From positions 3,351,051-3,415,050 of the forward strand of contig NZ_CP124862.1 in assembly GCF_030013905.1 (NCBI RefSeq): a stretch of 64,000 bases of DNA, written 5' to 3'. Position numbers and translations under genes: made by a program. Shown here piece by piece: positions 29,608-39,565 of the stretch. The DNA is from Petroclostridium sp. X23. Lineage in GTDB: Bacteria; Bacillota; Clostridia; SK-Y3. Below the pieces are notes generated by a model that was given only the letters and a program-made list of their open reading frames with translations, ran no database searches and was not told the origin of the DNA. Positions within the stretch are counted from its first letter, which is position 1. Each line of letters begins with the position of its first letter.

Positions 29608-29630
29608 AGATAAAAACCGTATCTAAATAA
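29608..29630 (+). promoter_or_regulatory. Conserved 23-bp element upstream of the hydS promoter
   Basis: AGATA-N7-TATCT followed by AAATAA; all 23 bases are identical to 34697-34719, and both copies end 42-43 bases before the -35. A partial second copy (AAAACCGTATCT) lies at 29642-29653, about three helical turns away. It is not seen before adhE. Probably a binding site for a regulator shared by the two hydrogenase operons. Confidence 0.6.
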
Positions 29631-29672
29631 CAATATTCATAGAAAACCGTATCTTATAAGCGGGCGATATTA

Positions 29673-29724
29673 TTGACAATTAATTAACAAAACCGTATAA
29701 TAGTAATTGTTAATAATTTAACAT
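29673..29724 (+). promoter_or_regulatory. hydS operon promoter with Rex box
   Basis: Consensus promoter TTGACA (29673), 17 bases, TATAAT (29696-29701). Five bases later is TTGTTAA-TAAT-TTAACAT (29707-29724), one mismatch from the Rex operator TTGTTAA-N4-TTAACAA. The -35 itself lies in a second, weaker Rex-like site (TTGACAA-TTAA-TTAACAA). Repression when NADH is low is the expected effect. Confidence 0.85.
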
Positions 29725-29764
29725 AAGTATATTAAAATATAATAAACATTTGGAGGTGCCTTTA

Positions 29765-30013
29765 ATGTTGCAAATATATATTTGTGTGGGCAGTTCATGC
29801 CATTTGAAAGGCTCATATCACATTATTAAAACTTTTCAGAATATGATAGCGGACAACAAGTTAGAAGAAAAAGTTGAATTAAAGGCATCTTTTTGCTTAG
29901 GGCGTTGCACCGAAGGAGTTTCTATTAAAATCGGAGACGACTTTATACCCAATGTTACAGTATCTAATGCTGAGCAGAAGTTCATGGAACATGTAATGGA
30001 GAGATTAAAATGA
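29765..30013 (+). CDS. Thioredoxin-like [2Fe-2S] ferredoxin
   Basis: An 82-residue protein with GGAGGTG upstream of the ATG. The cysteine pattern CVGSSC ... SFCLGRC matches thioredoxin-fold [2Fe-2S] ferredoxins related to the NuoE C-terminal half. It should carry electrons to or from the hydrogenase-like protein encoded next, with which it overlaps by ATGA. A paralogue ends the HydABC operon at 38959. Confidence 0.85.
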   Translation: MLQIYICVGSSCHLKGSYHIIKTFQNMIADNKLEEKVELKASFCLGRCTEGVSIKIGDDFIPNVTVSNAEQKFMEHVMERLK

Positions 30014-32915: not shown

Positions 32916-34520
32916 ATGATTTTAAGAACGATTACCCTAAAACTTCATAATCCTAGTAAAAGAAAAAAAGAAATAATAGATAGGGCCATGCGGAATTATT
33001 CTCGTGCTTATCAATATTTGTTAGATAAAGCTTATACGGAAATACAAGATATCAGAGACAATTATAAGGATAGGAACGGAAACTATAAGGCATTGAATAT
33101 TGCAAAGTGGATAGATAAGAGGATAAGCAAAGAATTAAATCAATTTGATATCCAGCCATTAAAAGACTCTCTAAAGTTGGATTTTGGCATGACATTAGCC
33201 AGTTATCTGAGTTTGAATGAGATTCAGCCCAATGCGAACTATCCTAAGGCCTATATTTCGCAGCAGGAATTTGAACAGAGATATGATCATATTCATCACC
33301 AGCTTATAAATGAAAAAATGCCTTTGTCTGAATTTGAGAAACAGATAAATAAAGTCATTAAAAAGAATGATACGCTTAAGCCGTTATTCTTTTGCAGATA
33401 TGATGCGAATAGGGATTATTGTTTACTATATGATGCACAGCGTAATAGATATTATGCAAAGATTTATTTAATGAATATTAAAGATGAAGATCGTAAAGTG
33501 ATTATCGATACAGGGACAAAAGAATTAAAGTATATACACAAAAATGGGGGACAGTTAACCAGCAGCGGTAGAAAAGAACGTTTTTTGATTTTGCCTCTTT
33601 CATTCGGAACATGGCAGGAACAACATTTAAAAAAAGCATTAGAGAATCCTGATCTTTTAAAGACTGCAAGATTAATAAAAAAGAATGGAGAGTATTATCT
33701 TTCCATAAGCATCAGTATGGAAGAATATGAAAAAATACAGGTTCAGACTTACCTCGGTATAGGAAGGGCAATGAGAAATCCGGTCCATTATACTGTGGTC
33801 GACAGGAATAATAGTATAGTTTGCAGTGAACCGGTACCGCTTCAGCATAACAAAAAGTATGTAAATAATAGATTGCCTCTTCATGAACTTCATAGAATTG
33901 CAAACAACATTGTAGAGGTTGCATATAAGGAAAAATCCCAAGTGATCATAAAATCTCTTATGGATCGAGGGGATAGATTGCAGTGGATAGATGCCGGCCA
34001 TGAAATGGCCATACCAGGCATTAACTGCAGCAGTTATAATCAGCTTGGACATATATTGGATTACAAGCTGCCTGAAAAAGGTCTGCCAACCCCAATTAGA
34101 ATCAGTCCTGCGGGTGTGTTCTGTACCTGCCCGGAATGCGGGTTGAATACAAGGCATAATAGGTTTTCAAAAGAACTGTTTATATGTACTGCCTGTGGAA
34201 AGACAATGAACATTGAACAGCTAGGGAGCTTAAATGTGGCCAGGAGATTGAATTGTAATAATGAACAAAGTCTTAAGATAAAGATTGAAAAAACGCCTGA
34301 TGGTGTGAGACTGACAAATAAAGTACTGGGATTAAACTATCATGTAAGAAATCCCCGTGAGAATATGGATGGTTTTATTCAGGAGATTGAAAGAACCGTT
34401 GAAGATTTTTATAAAAATATAAGTAAAAATACGAGAAACAAGGAATTCAAGAAGAAATACAGCTTAATTAAAAAGATAGAGCAAGCAGAAGATTTGAACG
34501 GTATTATTCAAATTGTATAA
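32916..34520 (+). CDS. Nuclease-dead TnpB-family protein (TldR-like) in the hydrogenase-sensor operon
   Basis: A 534-residue TnpB/OrfB-fold protein; start at 32916 with AGAGGATG upstream. The RuvC-I motif is LGIGRAMRN with Gly283 where TnpB has Asp; RuvC-II is VIIKSL with Lys346 for Glu; RuvC-III is GSLNVARR with Ser438 for Asp. The zinc ribbon is kept (C405, C408, C424, C427). All three catalytic acids are thus gone while the frame is intact and longer than typical TnpB (about 370-430). There is no tnpA, left end or target-site context; it follows the phosphatase gene by 15 bp with no terminator between. An omega-RNA-like scaffold follows. Inference: RNA-guided DNA binding without cleavage, as in TldR repressors. 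A decaying transposon gene is the alternative, but the long clean frame argues against it. Confidence 0.8.
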   Translation: MILRTITLKLHNPSKRKKEIIDRAMRNYSRAYQYLLDKAYTEIQDIRDNYKDRNGNYKALNIAKWIDKRISKELNQFDIQPLKDSLKLDFGMTLASYLSLNEIQPNANYPKAYISQQEFEQRYDHIHHQLINEKMPLSEFEKQINKVIKKNDTLKPLFFCRYDANRDYCLLYDAQRNRYYAKIYLMNIKDEDRKVIIDTGTKELKYIHKNGGQLTSSGRKERFLILPLSFGTWQEQHLKKALENPDLLKTARLIKKNGEYYLSISISMEEYEKIQVQTYLGIGRAMRNPVHYTVVDRNNSIVCSEPVPLQHNKKYVNNRLPLHELHRIANNIVEVAYKEKSQVIIKSLMDRGDRLQWIDAGHEMAIPGINCSSYNQLGHILDYKLPEKGLPTPIRISPAGVFCTCPECGLNTRHNRFSKELFICTACGKTMNIEQLGSLNVARRLNCNNEQSLKIKIEKTPDGVRLTNKVLGLNYHVRNPRENMDGFIQEIERTVEDFYKNISKNTRNKEFKKKYSLIKKIEQAEDLNGIIQIV

Positions 34521-34530
34521 AATGATATAG

Positions 34531-34694
34531 TGGTGTCTTTGCTGCCGCACCATAACCTGAAGTTAAGGAGAAATGCCTAACATCGGGTTGAAACTTACAT
34601 AGTAAGCATGAGATTCATGAAAGAGCAGCTATCTGACAATTTGACAAAGGATGCCTTAAGGGAAATCATTTTCCTCAGGCATCCTTTGTTTTTT
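34531..34694 (+). ncRNA. omega-RNA-like guide RNA downstream of the dead TnpB gene
   Basis: Begins 10 bases after the TnpB stop. Stem 1: TGGTG / CACCA (34531-34552). Stem 2: AACCTGA / TCGGGTT (34554-34560 with 34583-34589), enclosing GTTAAGG / CCTAAC. Stem 3: CTTAC-ATA-GTAAG (34594-34606), enclosed by GAA / TTC. The scaffold end CATGAGATTC (34607-34616) resembles IS605-type right ends, where the guide begins. A 29-base candidate guide (34617-34645, starting ATGAAAGAGCAGCTAT) runs to the terminator. I found no convincing full match to it elsewhere in the window by eye. Confidence 0.65.
34646..34694 (+). terminator. Terminator after the guide-RNA region
   Basis: AAAGGATGCCTTAAGG pairs with CCTCAGGCATCCTTT (one bulge), 11-base loop, then GTTTTTTG. 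It ends the hydS-dTnpB transcript and defines the 3' end of the candidate guide RNA. Confidence 0.85.
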
Positions 34695-34696
34695 GT

Positions 34697-34719
34697 AGAT
34701 AAAAACCGTATCTAAATAA
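34697..34719 (+). promoter_or_regulatory. Conserved 23-bp element upstream of the hydC promoter
   Basis: Identical to 29608-29630: AGATA-N7-TATCT then AAATAA. It ends 43 bases before the -35 of the HydCBA operon, matching the spacing at hydS. Confidence 0.6.
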
Positions 34720-34762: not shown

Positions 34763-34813
34763 TTGAAGCGTATATAAAGATATTATATAATGTGATTGTT
34801 AGTTTTTTAACAA
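34763..34813 (+). promoter_or_regulatory. HydCBA operon promoter with Rex box
   Basis: TTGAAG (34763), 17 bases, TATAAT (34786-34791). Four bases later is TTGTTAG-TTTT-TTAACAA (34796-34813), one mismatch from the Rex consensus. Same geometry as the hydS and adhE promoters. Confidence 0.8.
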
Positions 34814-34886: not shown

Positions 34887-35369
34887 ATGATTGAGAGTTA
34901 TCAGTTAGAAAAAGTAGATGAGATCATTGCAAAATATCAAAAGAAAAGATCTGCATTAATAGCGATTTTACAGGAGATACAAAAAGAATACAGATATCTT
35001 CCGGAAGAAGTACTTATGTATGTTTCTACAACAATGAATGTTAGTCCGGCTAAGGTTTTTAGCGTTGCAACATTCTATGAGAACTTTTCTATGGAACCTA
35101 AAGGGAAATATGTTATCAAAATTTGTGATGGTACCGCCTGTCATGTTAGAAAGTCCATACCCATCTTAAATGCATTGAGAACTGAACTTGGACTAAGTGC
35201 AGAAAAACATACTACCGATGATTTTTTATTTACTGTAGAAACCGTATCGTGTTTGGGAGCGTGCGGACTGGCACCGGTTATAACAGTTAACGATAAGGTA
35301 TACGCAAAAATGACACCGGAGTCCACAGGTAAATTGATCAAGGAAATCAGGGAGGCGGAAAAACAATGA
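34887..35369 (+). CDS. hydC: NuoE-like [2Fe-2S] subunit of NAD(H)-linked [FeFe]-hydrogenase
   Basis: A 160-residue thioredoxin-fold subunit with an N-terminal helical bundle. The four [2Fe-2S] cysteines lie in CDGTACHVR and SCLGACGLAP. It is the small subunit of the HydABC complex. The start at 34887 has AAAGGGGAG upstream. The gene ends in an ATGA overlap with the NuoF-like gene, matching a fixed stoichiometry. Confidence 0.92.
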   Translation: MIESYQLEKVDEIIAKYQKKRSALIAILQEIQKEYRYLPEEVLMYVSTTMNVSPAKVFSVATFYENFSMEPKGKYVIKICDGTACHVRKSIPILNALRTELGLSAEKHTTDDFLFTVETVSCLGACGLAPVITVNDKVYAKMTPESTGKLIKEIREAEKQ

Positions 35370-37237
35370 AAATACAAACAGTTGACCACCTTAAACAATT
35401 TGAGAGCCAGCTTAGCAAATCTCTAGATAAACAACAGCAAAAGGTATTGGTTTGTGCAGGAACCGGATGTGTAGCGGGAGGTTCCATTAATATATATAAC
35501 AGGATTGCAGAAATAGTAAAAGATAAAGGGTTGTTAACCCATGTTGACCTTGTAGAAGAAAATGAAGGGGTAGGCGTTAAGAAGAGCGGATGCCACGGTT
35601 TCTGTGAAATGGGCCCCCTGGTACGTATCGAACCGTATGGATATCTTTACATCAAGGTTCAGTTGGAAGATTGTGAAGAAATCGTTGAAACAACCTTGAT
35701 ACAAGGAAAACCTGTTGAAAGGTTGATGTATAATTGGGAAGGAAAAGCATATGCTGCCCAGGAAGAAATCCCTTTCTACAAAAAGCAAACAAGAATGGTG
35801 TTAGAAAACTGCGGACATATTGATGCGGAGTCAATCAAAGAATATATTGCCAAAGGCGGATACAATGCTCTAAGCAAGACGCTGTTTGAAATGACTCCTG
35901 AAGAAGTTTGCAAGATGATTTCCGATTCCAATTTAAGGGGAAGAGGCGGCGGCGGATATCCTGCAGGAAGAAAATGGTCCCAGGTATTGGCACAGCCGAG
36001 CCCCATAAAATATGTAGTATGTAATGGTGACGAGGGAGACCCGGGAGCATTCATGGATAGAAGCATTATGGAAGGGGATCCTCATAGAATGATCGAAGGG
36101 ATGTGTATCGCAGGATACGCAGCCGGCGCTTGTGAAGGATATATATATGTACGTGCGGAATATCCCCTTGCGGTTGACAGATTGAAAACAGCCATCGCTC
36201 AGGCCAGAGAGTGCGGACTGCTAGGTAATAATATTCTTGATTCGGGATTCAATTTTAATATCAATGTAAACCAGGGTGCAGGTGCTTTCGTATGCGGAGA
36301 AGGCAGTGCGCTTACCGCATCCATCGAAGGCGAGAGAGGTATGCCGAGGGTAAAACCGCCAAGAACCGTTGAAGCGGGTTTGTGGGCTAAGCCTACGGTG
36401 CTGAATAATGTAGAAACTTTTGCGAATGTGCCGCTCATTATTTTAAAAGGCAGTGACTGGTATAAATCCATAGGACCGGAAAAAAGTCCTGGGACCAAAG
36501 CATTTGCTATTACCGGTAATGTGAATAACACCGGTCTGATAGAAGTACCAATGGGAACGACCCTGAGAGAAGTTATCTTTGAAATTGGCGGCGGTGTTAA
36601 GGATAATAAAAGAATGAAGGCAGTGCAAATCGGTGGCCCTTCAGGTGCTTGTTTGACGGAAGAGCATCTTGACCTTCCGTTGGATTTCGATTCTCTTAAG
36701 AAAGTAGGGGCTATGATAGGGTCCGGCGGTCTTGTGGTAATGGATGAGGACACTTGCATGGTGGAAGTGGCGAGATTCTTTATGAACTTTACGCAGAATG
36801 AATCCTGCGGAAAATGTGTTCCCTGCCGTGAAGGAACAAAAAGAATGCTTGAGATATTAGAAGGTATCGTAGAAGGAAGAGGAACCTTAGAAGATCTTGA
36901 TCTTCTTTTGGATTTGGCGGATACCGTTGGCAGTACGGCATTGTGCGGATTGGGTAAAACCGCAGCGAATCCTGTAGTAAGTACATTGAAATATTTTAAA
37001 GATGAGTATATTGCGCATGTAGTAGATAAGAAATGTCCTTCAAAAACATGTCAGGCATTGAAGGTGCTGCGAATCAAAAAAGAACTATGTAAAGGATGCA
37101 GTAAATGTGCGAGAATATGCCCTGCAAATGCAATTGAAGGAAAAATAAAAGAACCTTATACAATTATAGCGGAAAAATGTATAAAATGCGGTGCTTGCTT
37201 ACAGTCCTGTGCGTTTAATGCAATTGAGGAGGTATAA
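35366..37237 (+). CDS. hydB: NuoF-like NAD(H)/FMN subunit of [FeFe]-hydrogenase
   Basis: A 623-residue flavoprotein: an N-terminal [2Fe-2S] thioredoxin-like domain (CAGTGCVAGG, KSGCHGFCEMGP), the NADH/FMN core (LRGRGGGGYPAGRKW, CNGDEGDPGAFMDRS), the [4Fe-4S] motif ESCGKCVPCREGTKR, and two C-terminal [4Fe-4S] motifs (CKGCSKCARICP and CIKCGACLQSC). The length and extra C-terminal clusters match HydB of trimeric electron-bifurcating hydrogenases, which use NADH and reduced ferredoxin together to make H2. Bifurcation itself cannot be shown from sequence. Confidence 0.92.
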   Translation: MKIQTVDHLKQFESQLSKSLDKQQQKVLVCAGTGCVAGGSINIYNRIAEIVKDKGLLTHVDLVEENEGVGVKKSGCHGFCEMGPLVRIEPYGYLYIKVQLEDCEEIVETTLIQGKPVERLMYNWEGKAYAAQEEIPFYKKQTRMVLENCGHIDAESIKEYIAKGGYNALSKTLFEMTPEEVCKMISDSNLRGRGGGGYPAGRKWSQVLAQPSPIKYVVCNGDEGDPGAFMDRSIMEGDPHRMIEGMCIAGYAAGACEGYIYVRAEYPLAVDRLKTAIAQARECGLLGNNILDSGFNFNINVNQGAGAFVCGEGSALTASIEGERGMPRVKPPRTVEAGLWAKPTVLNNVETFANVPLIILKGSDWYKSIGPEKSPGTKAFAITGNVNNTGLIEVPMGTTLREVIFEIGGGVKDNKRMKAVQIGGPSGACLTEEHLDLPLDFDSLKKVGAMIGSGGLVVMDEDTCMVEVARFFMNFTQNESCGKCVPCREGTKRMLEILEGIVEGRGTLEDLDLLLDLADTVGSTALCGLGKTAANPVVSTLKYFKDEYIAHVVDKKCPSKTCQALKVLRIKKELCKGCSKCARICPANAIEGKIKEPYTIIAEKCIKCGACLQSCAFNAIEEV

Positions 37238-37240
37238 AAG

Positions 37241-38923
37241 ATGAAGGGATATATGGTTGTAGACGGACAAAAAGTAGAATATAATGATGAAAAGAATGTA
37301 CTGGATGTAGTAAGAAACGCAGGCGTGGATTTACCTACATTTTGCTATCATTCTGAATTAAGTATATATGGCGCGTGCAGAATGTGTATGGTGGAAGATA
37401 AATGGGGCGGAACTTTTGCATCCTGTTCCACACCTCCTAAAAGCGGGATGGAGGTTTATACCAACACACCAAAACTTCAGAAGCACAGACGTATGATTTT
37501 AGAACTTTTGCTTTCAAATCACTGCAGAGATTGTACCGTTTGTGAGAAAAACGGAAAGTGTAAGCTCCAGGAACTGGCCGTCCGGTTTGGAATCAAGAAA
37601 ATACGTTTTAACAACATTGATAATCATCATCCGTTGGATGAAAGCAGTACCTCTATCACACGCAATCCTAACAAATGCATTCTTTGCGGCGACTGCGTGC
37701 GTATGTGTGAAGAAGTACAAGGGGTAGGCGTACTTGGTTTTGCGTATAGAGGCTCTAAAATAAAAGTGACACCCGCCTTCAATAAGCAGTTATCGGAAGC
37801 GGATTGTGTCAACTGCGGACAATGTACGGTTGTATGTCCTACAGGAGCGCTCATCGTTAAAAATGAGACTGACAAAGCGTGGAGTGTATTAAACAATCCT
37901 CAAAAAAGAGTGGTAGTTCAGATCGCCCCTGCAGTTAGAGTAGCCATTGGTGAAGAGTTTGGACTGCCTGCCGGTGAGATTGTAACAGGCAAGCTTGTAG
38001 CAGCATTGAGAAAGCTTGGTTTTGATGAAGTATATGACACTGCGATCGCAGCAGATTTGACTGTTATGGAAGAAACAAAAGAATTCATGAATAAGCTCAA
38101 GAAAGGCGATAATGCACTGCCATTATTTACTTCCTGCTGTCCTGCTTGGGTAAGATTCGCAGAACAAAAATATCCGCAATTGCAGCAATATATATCCAGC
38201 TGTCGTTCGCCTCAGCAGATGTTTGGAGCGGTCATTAAAGAACATTATAGAAGTATGAAAGAAATTGATAGCCGAGAAACCGTTGTTGTATCCATTATGC
38301 CATGTACAGCTAAAAAATATGAAGCATCCAGACCTGAACTGAGTGTAAATGGCGAACAAGATGTTGATATTGTATTGACAACGCAAGAATTAGCGCTGAT
38401 GCTTAAAGAAGCGGGTATTATATTCAATCAGCTTGAAGGTGAGTCACTGGATATGCCTTTTGGCCTTGCCAGCGGCGCGGGTGTTATTTTCGGTGTGACC
38501 GGAGGTGTAGCAGAAGCGGTACTCAGAAGATGCTATACGGAAAAAACAGCAAAAAATCTGAAAGAGATTGAATTTGTCGGAACCAGAGGTATGCAGGGCG
38601 TGAAAGAAGCGGTGGTAGAGATCGACGAAAAGCAGATAAAGATTGCGGTCGTTCATGGTCTGAAAAATGCGCAGGAATTAGTTGAGCAAATACAAGCAGG
38701 AGAAAAGCAATATGATTTTGTTGAAGTAATGGCATGCCCCGGTGGGTGCATCGGTGGGGCAGGACAGCCGCTTCCTGTAGATTCTTCAGTGAAACAGAAG
38801 AGAGCAAAAGGAATCTATAAGGCCGATAGAACATCGCAGATCAAGAGATCGGAAGAGAATCCGATGGTTGTTGCACTTTATAATGGCATGCTCAAAGATA
38901 AACATCACCTTCTCCATAGATAG
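37241..38923 (+). CDS. hydA: Catalytic [FeFe]-hydrogenase subunit
   Basis: A 560-residue enzyme. [2Fe-2S] ligands C35, C46, C49, C62; a His-Cys [4Fe-4S] site (H94, C98, C101, C107); two ferredoxin-like [4Fe-4S] motifs (CILCGDCVRMC, CVNCGQCTVVC). The H-cluster motifs are intact: L1 TSCCPAW (C299 proton transfer, C300 ligand), L2 IMPCTAKK (C354) and L3 MACPGGCIGG (C499, C503). It produces or oxidises H2 in the cytoplasm with HydB and HydC. The full catalytic set contrasts with the Ala-substituted L1 of the sensory protein at 30010. Confidence 0.95.
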   Translation: MKGYMVVDGQKVEYNDEKNVLDVVRNAGVDLPTFCYHSELSIYGACRMCMVEDKWGGTFASCSTPPKSGMEVYTNTPKLQKHRRMILELLLSNHCRDCTVCEKNGKCKLQELAVRFGIKKIRFNNIDNHHPLDESSTSITRNPNKCILCGDCVRMCEEVQGVGVLGFAYRGSKIKVTPAFNKQLSEADCVNCGQCTVVCPTGALIVKNETDKAWSVLNNPQKRVVVQIAPAVRVAIGEEFGLPAGEIVTGKLVAALRKLGFDEVYDTAIAADLTVMEETKEFMNKLKKGDNALPLFTSCCPAWVRFAEQKYPQLQQYISSCRSPQQMFGAVIKEHYRSMKEIDSRETVVVSIMPCTAKKYEASRPELSVNGEQDVDIVLTTQELALMLKEAGIIFNQLEGESLDMPFGLASGAGVIFGVTGGVAEAVLRRCYTEKTAKNLKEIEFVGTRGMQGVKEAVVEIDEKQIKIAVVHGLKNAQELVEQIQAGEKQYDFVEVMACPGGCIGGAGQPLPVDSSVKQKRAKGIYKADRTSQIKRSEENPMVVALYNGMLKDKHHLLHR

Positions 38924-39513: not shown

Positions 39514-39565
39514 TTGACAATAATTTAACGAAGTAGTATAATTATAATTGTTAAATAGTTAACAA
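39514..39565 (+). promoter_or_regulatory. adhE promoter with perfect Rex box
   Basis: TTGACA (39514), 17 bases, TATAAT (39537-39542); five bases later TTGTTAA-ATAG-TTAACAA (39548-39565), a perfect Rex operator. The -35 sits in a weaker Rex-like site (TTGACAA-TAAT-TTAACGA), as at hydS. Confidence 0.9.

What the first reader, a model, noticed from the sequence alone, without database searches (positions are those of the whole stretch)
32916..34520. Nuclease-dead TnpB embedded in a hydrogenase-sensor operon: candidate RNA-guided regulator
Seen: a 534-residue TnpB-fold protein in which all three RuvC catalytic acids are replaced (G283, K346, S438) while the zinc-ribbon cysteines and the overall frame are intact. 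Known: TldR proteins are domesticated, nuclease-dead TnpBs that repress genes with a guide RNA; those described accompany fliC or oppF. Inference: this is a separate domestication tied to H2/redox sensing. I know of no described link between dead TnpB and [FeFe]-hydrogenase.
Basis: partly seen in the sequence, partly recalled or inferred. Interest (0 to 1): 0.95.

Follow-up and report, generated by a model that had tools for sequence, protein, structure and literature searches.

The report
Frozen-guide dead Cas12f/TnpB hydrogenase regulator
A nuclease-dead relative of TnpB/Cas12f sits next to a hydrogen sensor in fermentative Clostridia with its own small RNA, whose last five or six letters match sites at a fixed distance upstream of the hydrogenase promoters, so it looks like a natural RNA-guided switch for hydrogen metabolism.

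Summary
The gene at 32916-34520 has a Cas12f/TnpB fold. Across 31 orthologues the RuvC-I aspartate is always lost. All orthologues lie behind hydS-spoIIE (sometimes with adhE between), under purifying selection.

Directly downstream is an undescribed ~110-nt RNA with a covarying pseudoknot, ending GCAGC-TATCT-R and usually followed closely by a terminator. A motif, AAAACC[G/T/A]|TATCTA, upstream of the hydS-operon and hydCBA promoters repeats the RNA's 3' end behind a C-rich TAM (17 sites observed, 0.5 expected). In Caproiciproducens and a relative, RNA and DNA both read TATTT. Forty hydS-spoIIE loci lacking the gene have no such site. The window's 5.5-Mb genome has two non-coding copies of AAACCNTATCTA: these two promoters. 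Sites lie 55-57 (or 44-45, 26) bp upstream of the -35 box, which suggests activation.

I infer a TldR-like RNA-guided transcription factor whose guide is frozen at 5-6 nt, controlling H2/redox genes. Nothing was tested at the bench. Christensenella, Caloramator and one MAG lack an evident site nearby.

The parts
32916..34520 (+). Nuclease-dead Cas12f/TnpB-like protein, 534 aa (alternative start 32907); RuvC-I G283, RuvC-II K346, RuvC-III E434; ~100-residue C-terminal extension after RuvC-III present in all orthologues
34525..34637 (+). Conserved structured RNA (guide-RNA scaffold plus start of guide), not in Rfam; single copy per genome, only in tnpB+ genomes of those searched
34532..34551 (+). 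RNA hairpin 1 (GGTG...CACC) whose loop GCTGC (34541-34545) pairs with GCAGC (34625-34629) as a pseudoknot
   Evidence: covariation G-C->A-U in 5 and C-G->U-A in 1 of 25 sequences
34594..34606 (+). RNA central stem-loop CTTAC-ATA-GTAAG
   Evidence: 8-11 sequences with both-side changes at four of its five pairs
34630..34637 (+). Guide: TATCT + purine (TATCTGAC here), directly after the pseudoknot
   Evidence: matches targets
34645..34688 (+). Terminator-like stem-loop of the RNA, starting 10 nt after TATCT
   Evidence: fold; sequence
29612..29625 (+). Target site 1, AAAAACCG|TATCTA, distal site of the trx-hydS-spoIIE-tnpB operon promoter; CC lies 56 bp before the -35
29642..29655 (+). Target site 2, GAAAACCG|TATCTT, proximal site, 26 bp before the -35
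34701..34714 (+). Target site 3, AAAAACCG|TATCTA, in the hydCBA promoter, 57 bp before the -35
29673..29701 (+). Sigma-70-type promoter TTGACA-17-TATAAT of the sensor operon
   Evidence: 12/12 match
34763..34791 (+). Sigma-70-type promoter TTGAAG-17-TATAAT of hydCBA
   Evidence: 10/12
29707..29724 (+). Rex-operator-like palindrome just after the -10 of the sensor operon
   Evidence: 1 mismatch to TTGTTAA-N4-TTAACAA
34796..34813 (+). Rex-operator-like palindrome just after the -10 of hydCBA
   Evidence: 1 mismatch
29750..30013 (+). Thioredoxin-like [2Fe-2S] ferredoxin, first gene of the sensor operon (ATG probably near 29765)
   Evidence: Pfam PF01257
30010..31731 (+). hydS / hfsB: [FeFe]-hydrogenase-like putative H2 sensor with PAS domain
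   Evidence: Pfam Fe_hyd_lg_C + PAS; PMC11837493
31728..32900 (+). spoIIE-type PP2C Ser/Thr phosphatase (hfsC)
   Evidence: Pfam PF07228
34887..35369 (+). hydC/nuoE subunit of the hydABC hydrogenase (first gene of the target operon); named from sequence, no family scan run
35366..37237 (+). hydB/nuoF subunit; named from sequence, no family scan run
37241..38923 (+). hydA catalytic subunit; named from sequence, no family scan run

Best explanation
The protein is a domesticated, nuclease-dead Cas12f/TnpB that works with the RNA encoded directly behind it as an RNA-guided transcription factor. The RNA has a TnpB/Cas12f-type scaffold (hairpin, central stem, pseudoknot) whose guide has shrunk to the 5-6 nt TATCT-R fixed at its 3' end (8-10 nt match at some sites). 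The complex recognises a C-rich TAM (CC[G/T/A], usually after an A-run) and pairs the guide next to it at AAAACC[G/T/A]|TATCTA sites. These lie at set distances upstream of the -35 box of the hydS-spoIIE-tnpB operon and of hydABC, and in some genomes of a second hydABC-like operon, an iron-dependent alcohol dehydrogenase and a FAD/NAD-binding subunit of the NfnA/DHODH-B type. From there it most likely activates sigma-70-type promoters that also carry Rex-like operators, under control of the H2 sensor HydS and its phosphatase. Shown by computation: conserved locus, loss of RuvC-I Asp, co-conserved structured RNA, guide-like motif in promoters, matched RNA and DNA letters in the one lineage that differs, spacing. 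Inferred: RNA binding, R-loop formation, activation, and the HydS/SpoIIE link.
For: Conserved gene order in all tnpB+ loci; RuvC-I Asp lost 31/31, dN/dS about 0.03-0.11 in close pairs; Cas12f fold. RNA with covarying pseudoknot and stem, present in 14/14 tnpB+ genomes at E<=5.5e-15 and in no other of 391 class genomes better than 6e-4. AACCN followed by the RNA's own 5-mer: 17 sites in 13 of 21 TATCT loci against 0.49 expected (P~1e-20, optimistic because species are related and because the motif was found in these same loci; next 5-mer has 4); in the three TATTT loci TATTT 4 against 0.25 and TATCT 0. 40 hydS-spoIIE loci of tnpB- genomes: 0 sites, 1.08 expected. Own genome: 3 AAACCNTATCTA in 5.5 Mb, two being the two hyd promoters and one inside a gene. 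In other tnpB+ genomes the non-coding AAAACCDTATCTA sites whose downstream genes were identified precede hydC, trx-hydS, hydB/nuoF-type, iron-ADH and NfnA/DHODH-B-type genes. Distance CC to -35 is 55-57 for 11 of 31 promoter-like matches (0.98 expected if uniform), 44-45 for five, 26 for three. RNA position 6 is always a purine, able to pair with target-strand T as A-T or G-T.
Against: No site was found near the locus in Christensenella (L034, L060-L062), Caloramator (L047, L069) or L048, and L042 has TATTTA where its RNA has TATCTA. Complementarity is only 5-6 nt in most genomes, and longer matches were not enriched. An acidic residue is retained at the RuvC-III position in most orthologues. 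Activation rests on site position only. No sigma factor or known activation domain was recognised; the C-terminal extension matches no family.
Confidence: 0.75

Rival explanations
1. Same RNA-guided complex, but it represses: as in TldRs, binding near the hydrogenase promoters blocks transcription.
For: TldRs studied so far repress (PMC13418256). One sensor-operon site lies only 26 bp from the -35 and tandem sites occur.
Against: Most sites lie 44-57 bp upstream of the -35, outside the region RNA polymerase core needs, at fixed spacing. Many of the distal sites precede poor -35 boxes (TTGAAG, TTGATG, TTGCCG), as expected for activated promoters.
Confidence: 0.18
2. The DNA motif is the operator of another, unrelated transcription factor, and the RNA tail resembles it by chance or acts as a decoy.
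For: Complementarity is only 5-6 nt; several lineages with the RNA lack the motif nearby.
Against: The motif is absent from 40 hydS-spoIIE loci without the gene; RNA and DNA both read TATTT in L063/L064/L066; the matching nucleotides are those just after the pseudoknot, where a guide is expected, and are preceded by a C-rich motif like the PAM of the nearest solved relative.
Confidence: 0.05
3. Decaying mobile gene: a TnpB left by an insertion sequence, carried along by chance.
For: Relatives of the fold are mostly transposon genes; two RuvC acids are lost in the window.
Against: Found at one locus across several families, strong purifying selection, co-conserved covarying RNA; no close relative in viral contigs or plasmids.
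Confidence: 0.01

Closest known systems
TldR (TnpB-like nuclease-dead repressors)
   Same: Dead TnpB-superfamily protein, guide RNA encoded next to it, TAM-adjacent promoter targets, domestication with a host pathway; a guide as short as 6 nt is enough in a characterised TldR (PMC13418256)
   Different: Known ones act on flagellin genes (and, from memory, accompany oppF) with longer, target-specific guides and repress. Here the guide is a conserved 5-6-nt stub, targets lie upstream of the -35, and the partners are an H2 sensor and a phosphatase
CnCas12f1 and other Cas12f nucleases
   Same: Best profile match (8HR5) and whole-protein fold; C-rich PAM reported for a miniature Cas12f (Su et al. 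2024 title, cited in PMC13186708; that it is CnCas12f1 is from memory), like the CC[G/T/A] motif here
   Different: No RuvC-I Asp, no spacer-length guide in the RNA, and a ~100-aa C-terminal extension
dCas12f-sigma systems (RNA-guided transcription; from memory; PDB 9n9m/9n9c dCas12f complexes appear)
   Same: Dead Cas12f relative bound upstream of a transcription start to promote transcription
   Different: No sigma factor gene recognised at this locus; target promoters have recognisable -35/-10 boxes
hfsABCD / HydS module of Thermoanaerobacterium and Ruminococcus albus (PMC11837493)
   Same: Same PAS-hydrogenase sensor and Ser phosphatase pair, thought to regulate hydrogenases
   Different: 40 sampled loci without tnpB show no target motif; tnpB occurs in 14 of 107 genomes that have the phosphatase

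Membership tests
TldR | TnpB/Cas12-superfamily fold | tested here: met
TldR | RuvC catalytic residues inactivated | tested here: met
   RuvC-I Asp lost in 31/31; RuvC-II Glu lost in 22/31; RuvC-III mostly E or D
TldR | Guide RNA scaffold encoded next to the gene | tested here: met
   covarying RNA directly downstream in all loci
TldR | Guide complementary to a promoter next to a TAM | tested here: met
   5-6 nt (up to 10) next to CC[G/T/A]; not found in 7 loci with upstream sequence
TldR | Represses its target | not testable with these tools
   site position favours activation
TldR | Phylogenetic descent from a described TldR/TnpB clade | not tested
   no tree built against known TldR sequences
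Cas12f CRISPR effector | Intact RuvC catalytic triad | tested here: not met
   RuvC-I Asp absent in all
Cas12f CRISPR effector | CRISPR array supplying spacers | not tested
   no dedicated array search was run; the RNA mostly carries only a short tail before its terminator
dCas12f-sigma RNA-guided transcription system | Sigma factor gene paired with the effector | tested here: inconclusive
   conserved neighbours are hydS, spoIIE, adhE, hydABC and a [2Fe-2S] protein; unlabelled ORFs were not all annotated
IS200/IS605 or IS607 mobile TnpB | Several copies or scattered insertion sites | tested here: not met
   single copy, fixed locus

The most novel reading that the evidence does not exclude
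A natural RNA-guided transcription activator whose guide has become a fixed part of the scaffold (5-6 nt), so that a programmable nuclease has turned into a regulator with one inherited class of DNA sites, controlling a hydrogen/redox regulon as the output stage of an H2-sensing hydrogenase.
Probability: 0.5. Interest if true: 0.96.

Novelty: new variant of a known kind. Interest (0 to 1): 0.92.

Why it matters
How HydS-type sensory hydrogenases pass their signal to transcription is open; hfsB was only hypothesised to encode a regulator of the other genes in its operon (PMC11837493). This locus offers a concrete, testable output: an RNA-protein complex with named sites in hydrogenase promoters. 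It would also show that RNA-guided nucleases can be domesticated into core-metabolism regulators across several clostridial families, that a guide can shrink and freeze, and, if activation is confirmed, that nature made a CRISPRa-like device without a dedicated sigma factor. Hydrogen and ethanol yields of these fermenters are of practical interest.

Tried and rejected
A longer guide after TATCT was tested first: no enrichment in local intergenic DNA, none in the window's genome for GACAATTTGA (15 hits, reversed control 24), none in G089 (68 against 108). Additional copies of the RNA elsewhere: none convincing. Cis-attenuation of a downstream gene: rejected because downstream genes differ and are often on the other strand while the RNA stays. 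Decaying IS gene: rejected. Mobile-element homes: viral contigs none, plasmids only distant TnpBs. C-terminal extension: no Pfam family; not modelled alone. The first genome-contig scan with a single sequence found nothing; the alignment scan worked.

Full report
Observation. The ORF at 32916-34520 encodes 534 aa. Pfam finds the Cas12f1-like zinc-ribbon domain above its cut-off. A profile of 14 orthologues hits CnCas12f1 (PDB 8HR5, E=6.6e-12) and other Cas12f/TnpB/Cas12e chains (8HR5 identified as CnCas12f1). An AlphaFold2 model from 31 orthologues (mean pLDDT 86.5) matches Cas12f, CasX and TnpB structures over about 500 columns. The catalytic residues were read from the alignment: position 283 (RuvC-I Asp) is S19 A6 T3 G2 V1; position 346 (RuvC-II Glu) is Q13 E9 Y4 K3 H2; position 434 (RuvC-III Asp) is E19 D9 K2 G1. 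The profile match to Cas12e, whose solved chain is named 'dLesCas12e' (a dead mutant), places G283 on the RuvC-I position and E434 on the RuvC-III position. That loss of the RuvC-I Asp abolishes cleavage is established for Cas12/TnpB and is inferred here.

Conservation. The gene is single copy in its genome. Orthologues of 58-62% identity occur in three other genera of the family and of about 30-51% in other Clostridia, among them Ruminiclostridium, Caloramator, Christensenella, Caproiciproducens and several MAGs. Every one lies behind hydS-spoIIE, in some with adhE in between. In a sample of 391 class genomes the phosphatase occurs in 107 and tnpB in 14 of those. dN/dS for close pairs is about 0.03-0.11. 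No close relative was found in viral contigs or plasmids.

The RNA. Directly downstream of tnpB in all loci is a conserved element: hairpin GGTG...GCTGCCGCACC, a variable stem in most, stem CTTAC-AGA-GTAAG, then GTGCAGCTATCT. RNAalifold on 25 sequences finds the GCTGC/GCAGC pairing, with 5 G-C to A-U and 1 C-G to U-A double changes, and a central stem with 8-11 double changes at four of its five pairs. The window RNA plus terminator folds 4.8 sd better than shuffles. No Rfam family matches. A covariance model finds it in each of 14 tnpB+ genomes once with a strong score (E<=5.5e-15), and nowhere else in the class sample better than 6e-4.

The guide and its targets. Searches for a guide after TATCT failed, and in most loci a terminator-like stem starts within a few nucleotides. 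An unbiased count of k-mers in intergenic DNA then showed ACCGTATCTA (in context AAAACCGTATCTA) among the most widespread motifs, standing out from simple AT-rich and Rex-like sequences. It repeats the RNA's TATCT immediately after a CC-containing element. Sites are CC[G/T/A]|TATCTA in front of hydC or the trx-hydS operon. Given AACCN in non-coding DNA, TATCT follows 17 times in 13 of 21 loci (0.49 expected, P~1e-20 by Poisson; optimistic because the species are related and the motif was discovered in the same loci). In L063, L064 and L066, whose RNA reads TATTT, TATTT follows 4 times (0.25 expected) and TATCT never. This joint difference is one evolutionary event. The control set, 40 hydS-spoIIE loci from genomes without tnpB (102 kb of intergenic DNA, 680 AACCN), has none (1.08 expected). 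Across its 5.5-Mb genome the window organism has three AAACCNTATCTA: the two hydrogenase promoters and one inside an integrase-like gene. In other tnpB+ genomes non-coding sites lie before hydC, trx-hydS, a second hydB operon (70% identity), a NuoF-type operon, an iron alcohol dehydrogenase and a FAD/NAD-binding subunit of the NfnA/DHODH-B type; the remaining sites are inside genes. In tnpB- genomes 11 of 12 sites checked are inside genes. Position 6 of the RNA is always A or G, and the site has A at almost all loci, so A-T or G-T pairing is possible (inference). Some sites match further: 10 nt in L044, 9 in L050, 8 in L049 and L005.

How it probably acts. The CC lies 55-57 bp before the -35 in 11 of 31 promoter-like matches (0.98 expected if uniform), 44-45 bp in five and 26 bp in three. 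In the window operon promoter both a 56- and a 26-bp site are present, and L005 and L044 show the same pair, about 31 bp apart. Fixed spacing upstream of the -35, many of the distal sites before poor -35 boxes, is the pattern of an activator that touches RNA polymerase. This is inference from position. Rex-like operators overlap the start regions of both window promoters, and a perfect one precedes adhE. HydS and the PP2C phosphatase are natural upstream partners: HydS/HfsB is thought to sense H2 or redox state and hfsB was hypothesised to encode a regulator (PMC11837493). How they would control the complex is unknown. A ~100-residue C-terminal extension after RuvC-III is present in all orthologues and matches no family; it is a candidate effector part.

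Comparison. The nearest functional precedent is TldR. A characterised TldR needs only 6 nt of guide (PMC13418256), which makes a 5-6-nt guide plausible. [quoted passage not shown] 2024, cited in PMC13186708; that this is CnCas12f1 is from memory), consistent with CC[G/T/A] here. The original TldR paper and the TnpB diversity survey were not held, so a mention of this clade there cannot be excluded; literature searches found no link between TnpB and hydrogenase regulation.

Limits. All evidence is computational. Four Christensenella loci, two Caloramator loci and L048 show no site nearby; L042 has one mismatch; L052, L065 and L068 are cut off upstream.

Noticed in passing
window 39548-39565, 29707-29724, 34796-34813: Rex-operator-like palindromes: a perfect TTGTTAA-N4-TTAACAA upstream of adhE and one-mismatch copies at the two hydrogenase promoters, so these promoters look doubly regulated.
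   Followed up: partly
L059:11640-12240: A second target-like site downstream of tnpB precedes a small ORF (about 90 aa, MKLELDVYSAIC...) of unknown function with its own promoter and a Rex-like sequence.
   Followed up: partly
L053, L063, L064, L066, L069: In these loci a hydrogenase-like gene (matches hydS, presumably a monomeric [FeFe]-hydrogenase) is transcribed divergently from hydS, so the intergenic region with the target site may serve both directions.
   Followed up: partly
L127 (G009): In one tnpB-negative genome the hydS-spoIIE pair is followed by what reads like a histidine kinase/response regulator pair, a possible alternative output stage.
   Followed up: no
L228 (G082): The only AAAACCDTATCTA site of the 12 checked in tnpB-negative genomes that is not inside a long ORF; downstream gene not identified.
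   Followed up: no
L055:11498-11697 and L068:8706-8852: These two related loci carry much longer versions of the RNA (200 and 147 nt) with the same conserved ends.
   Followed up: no
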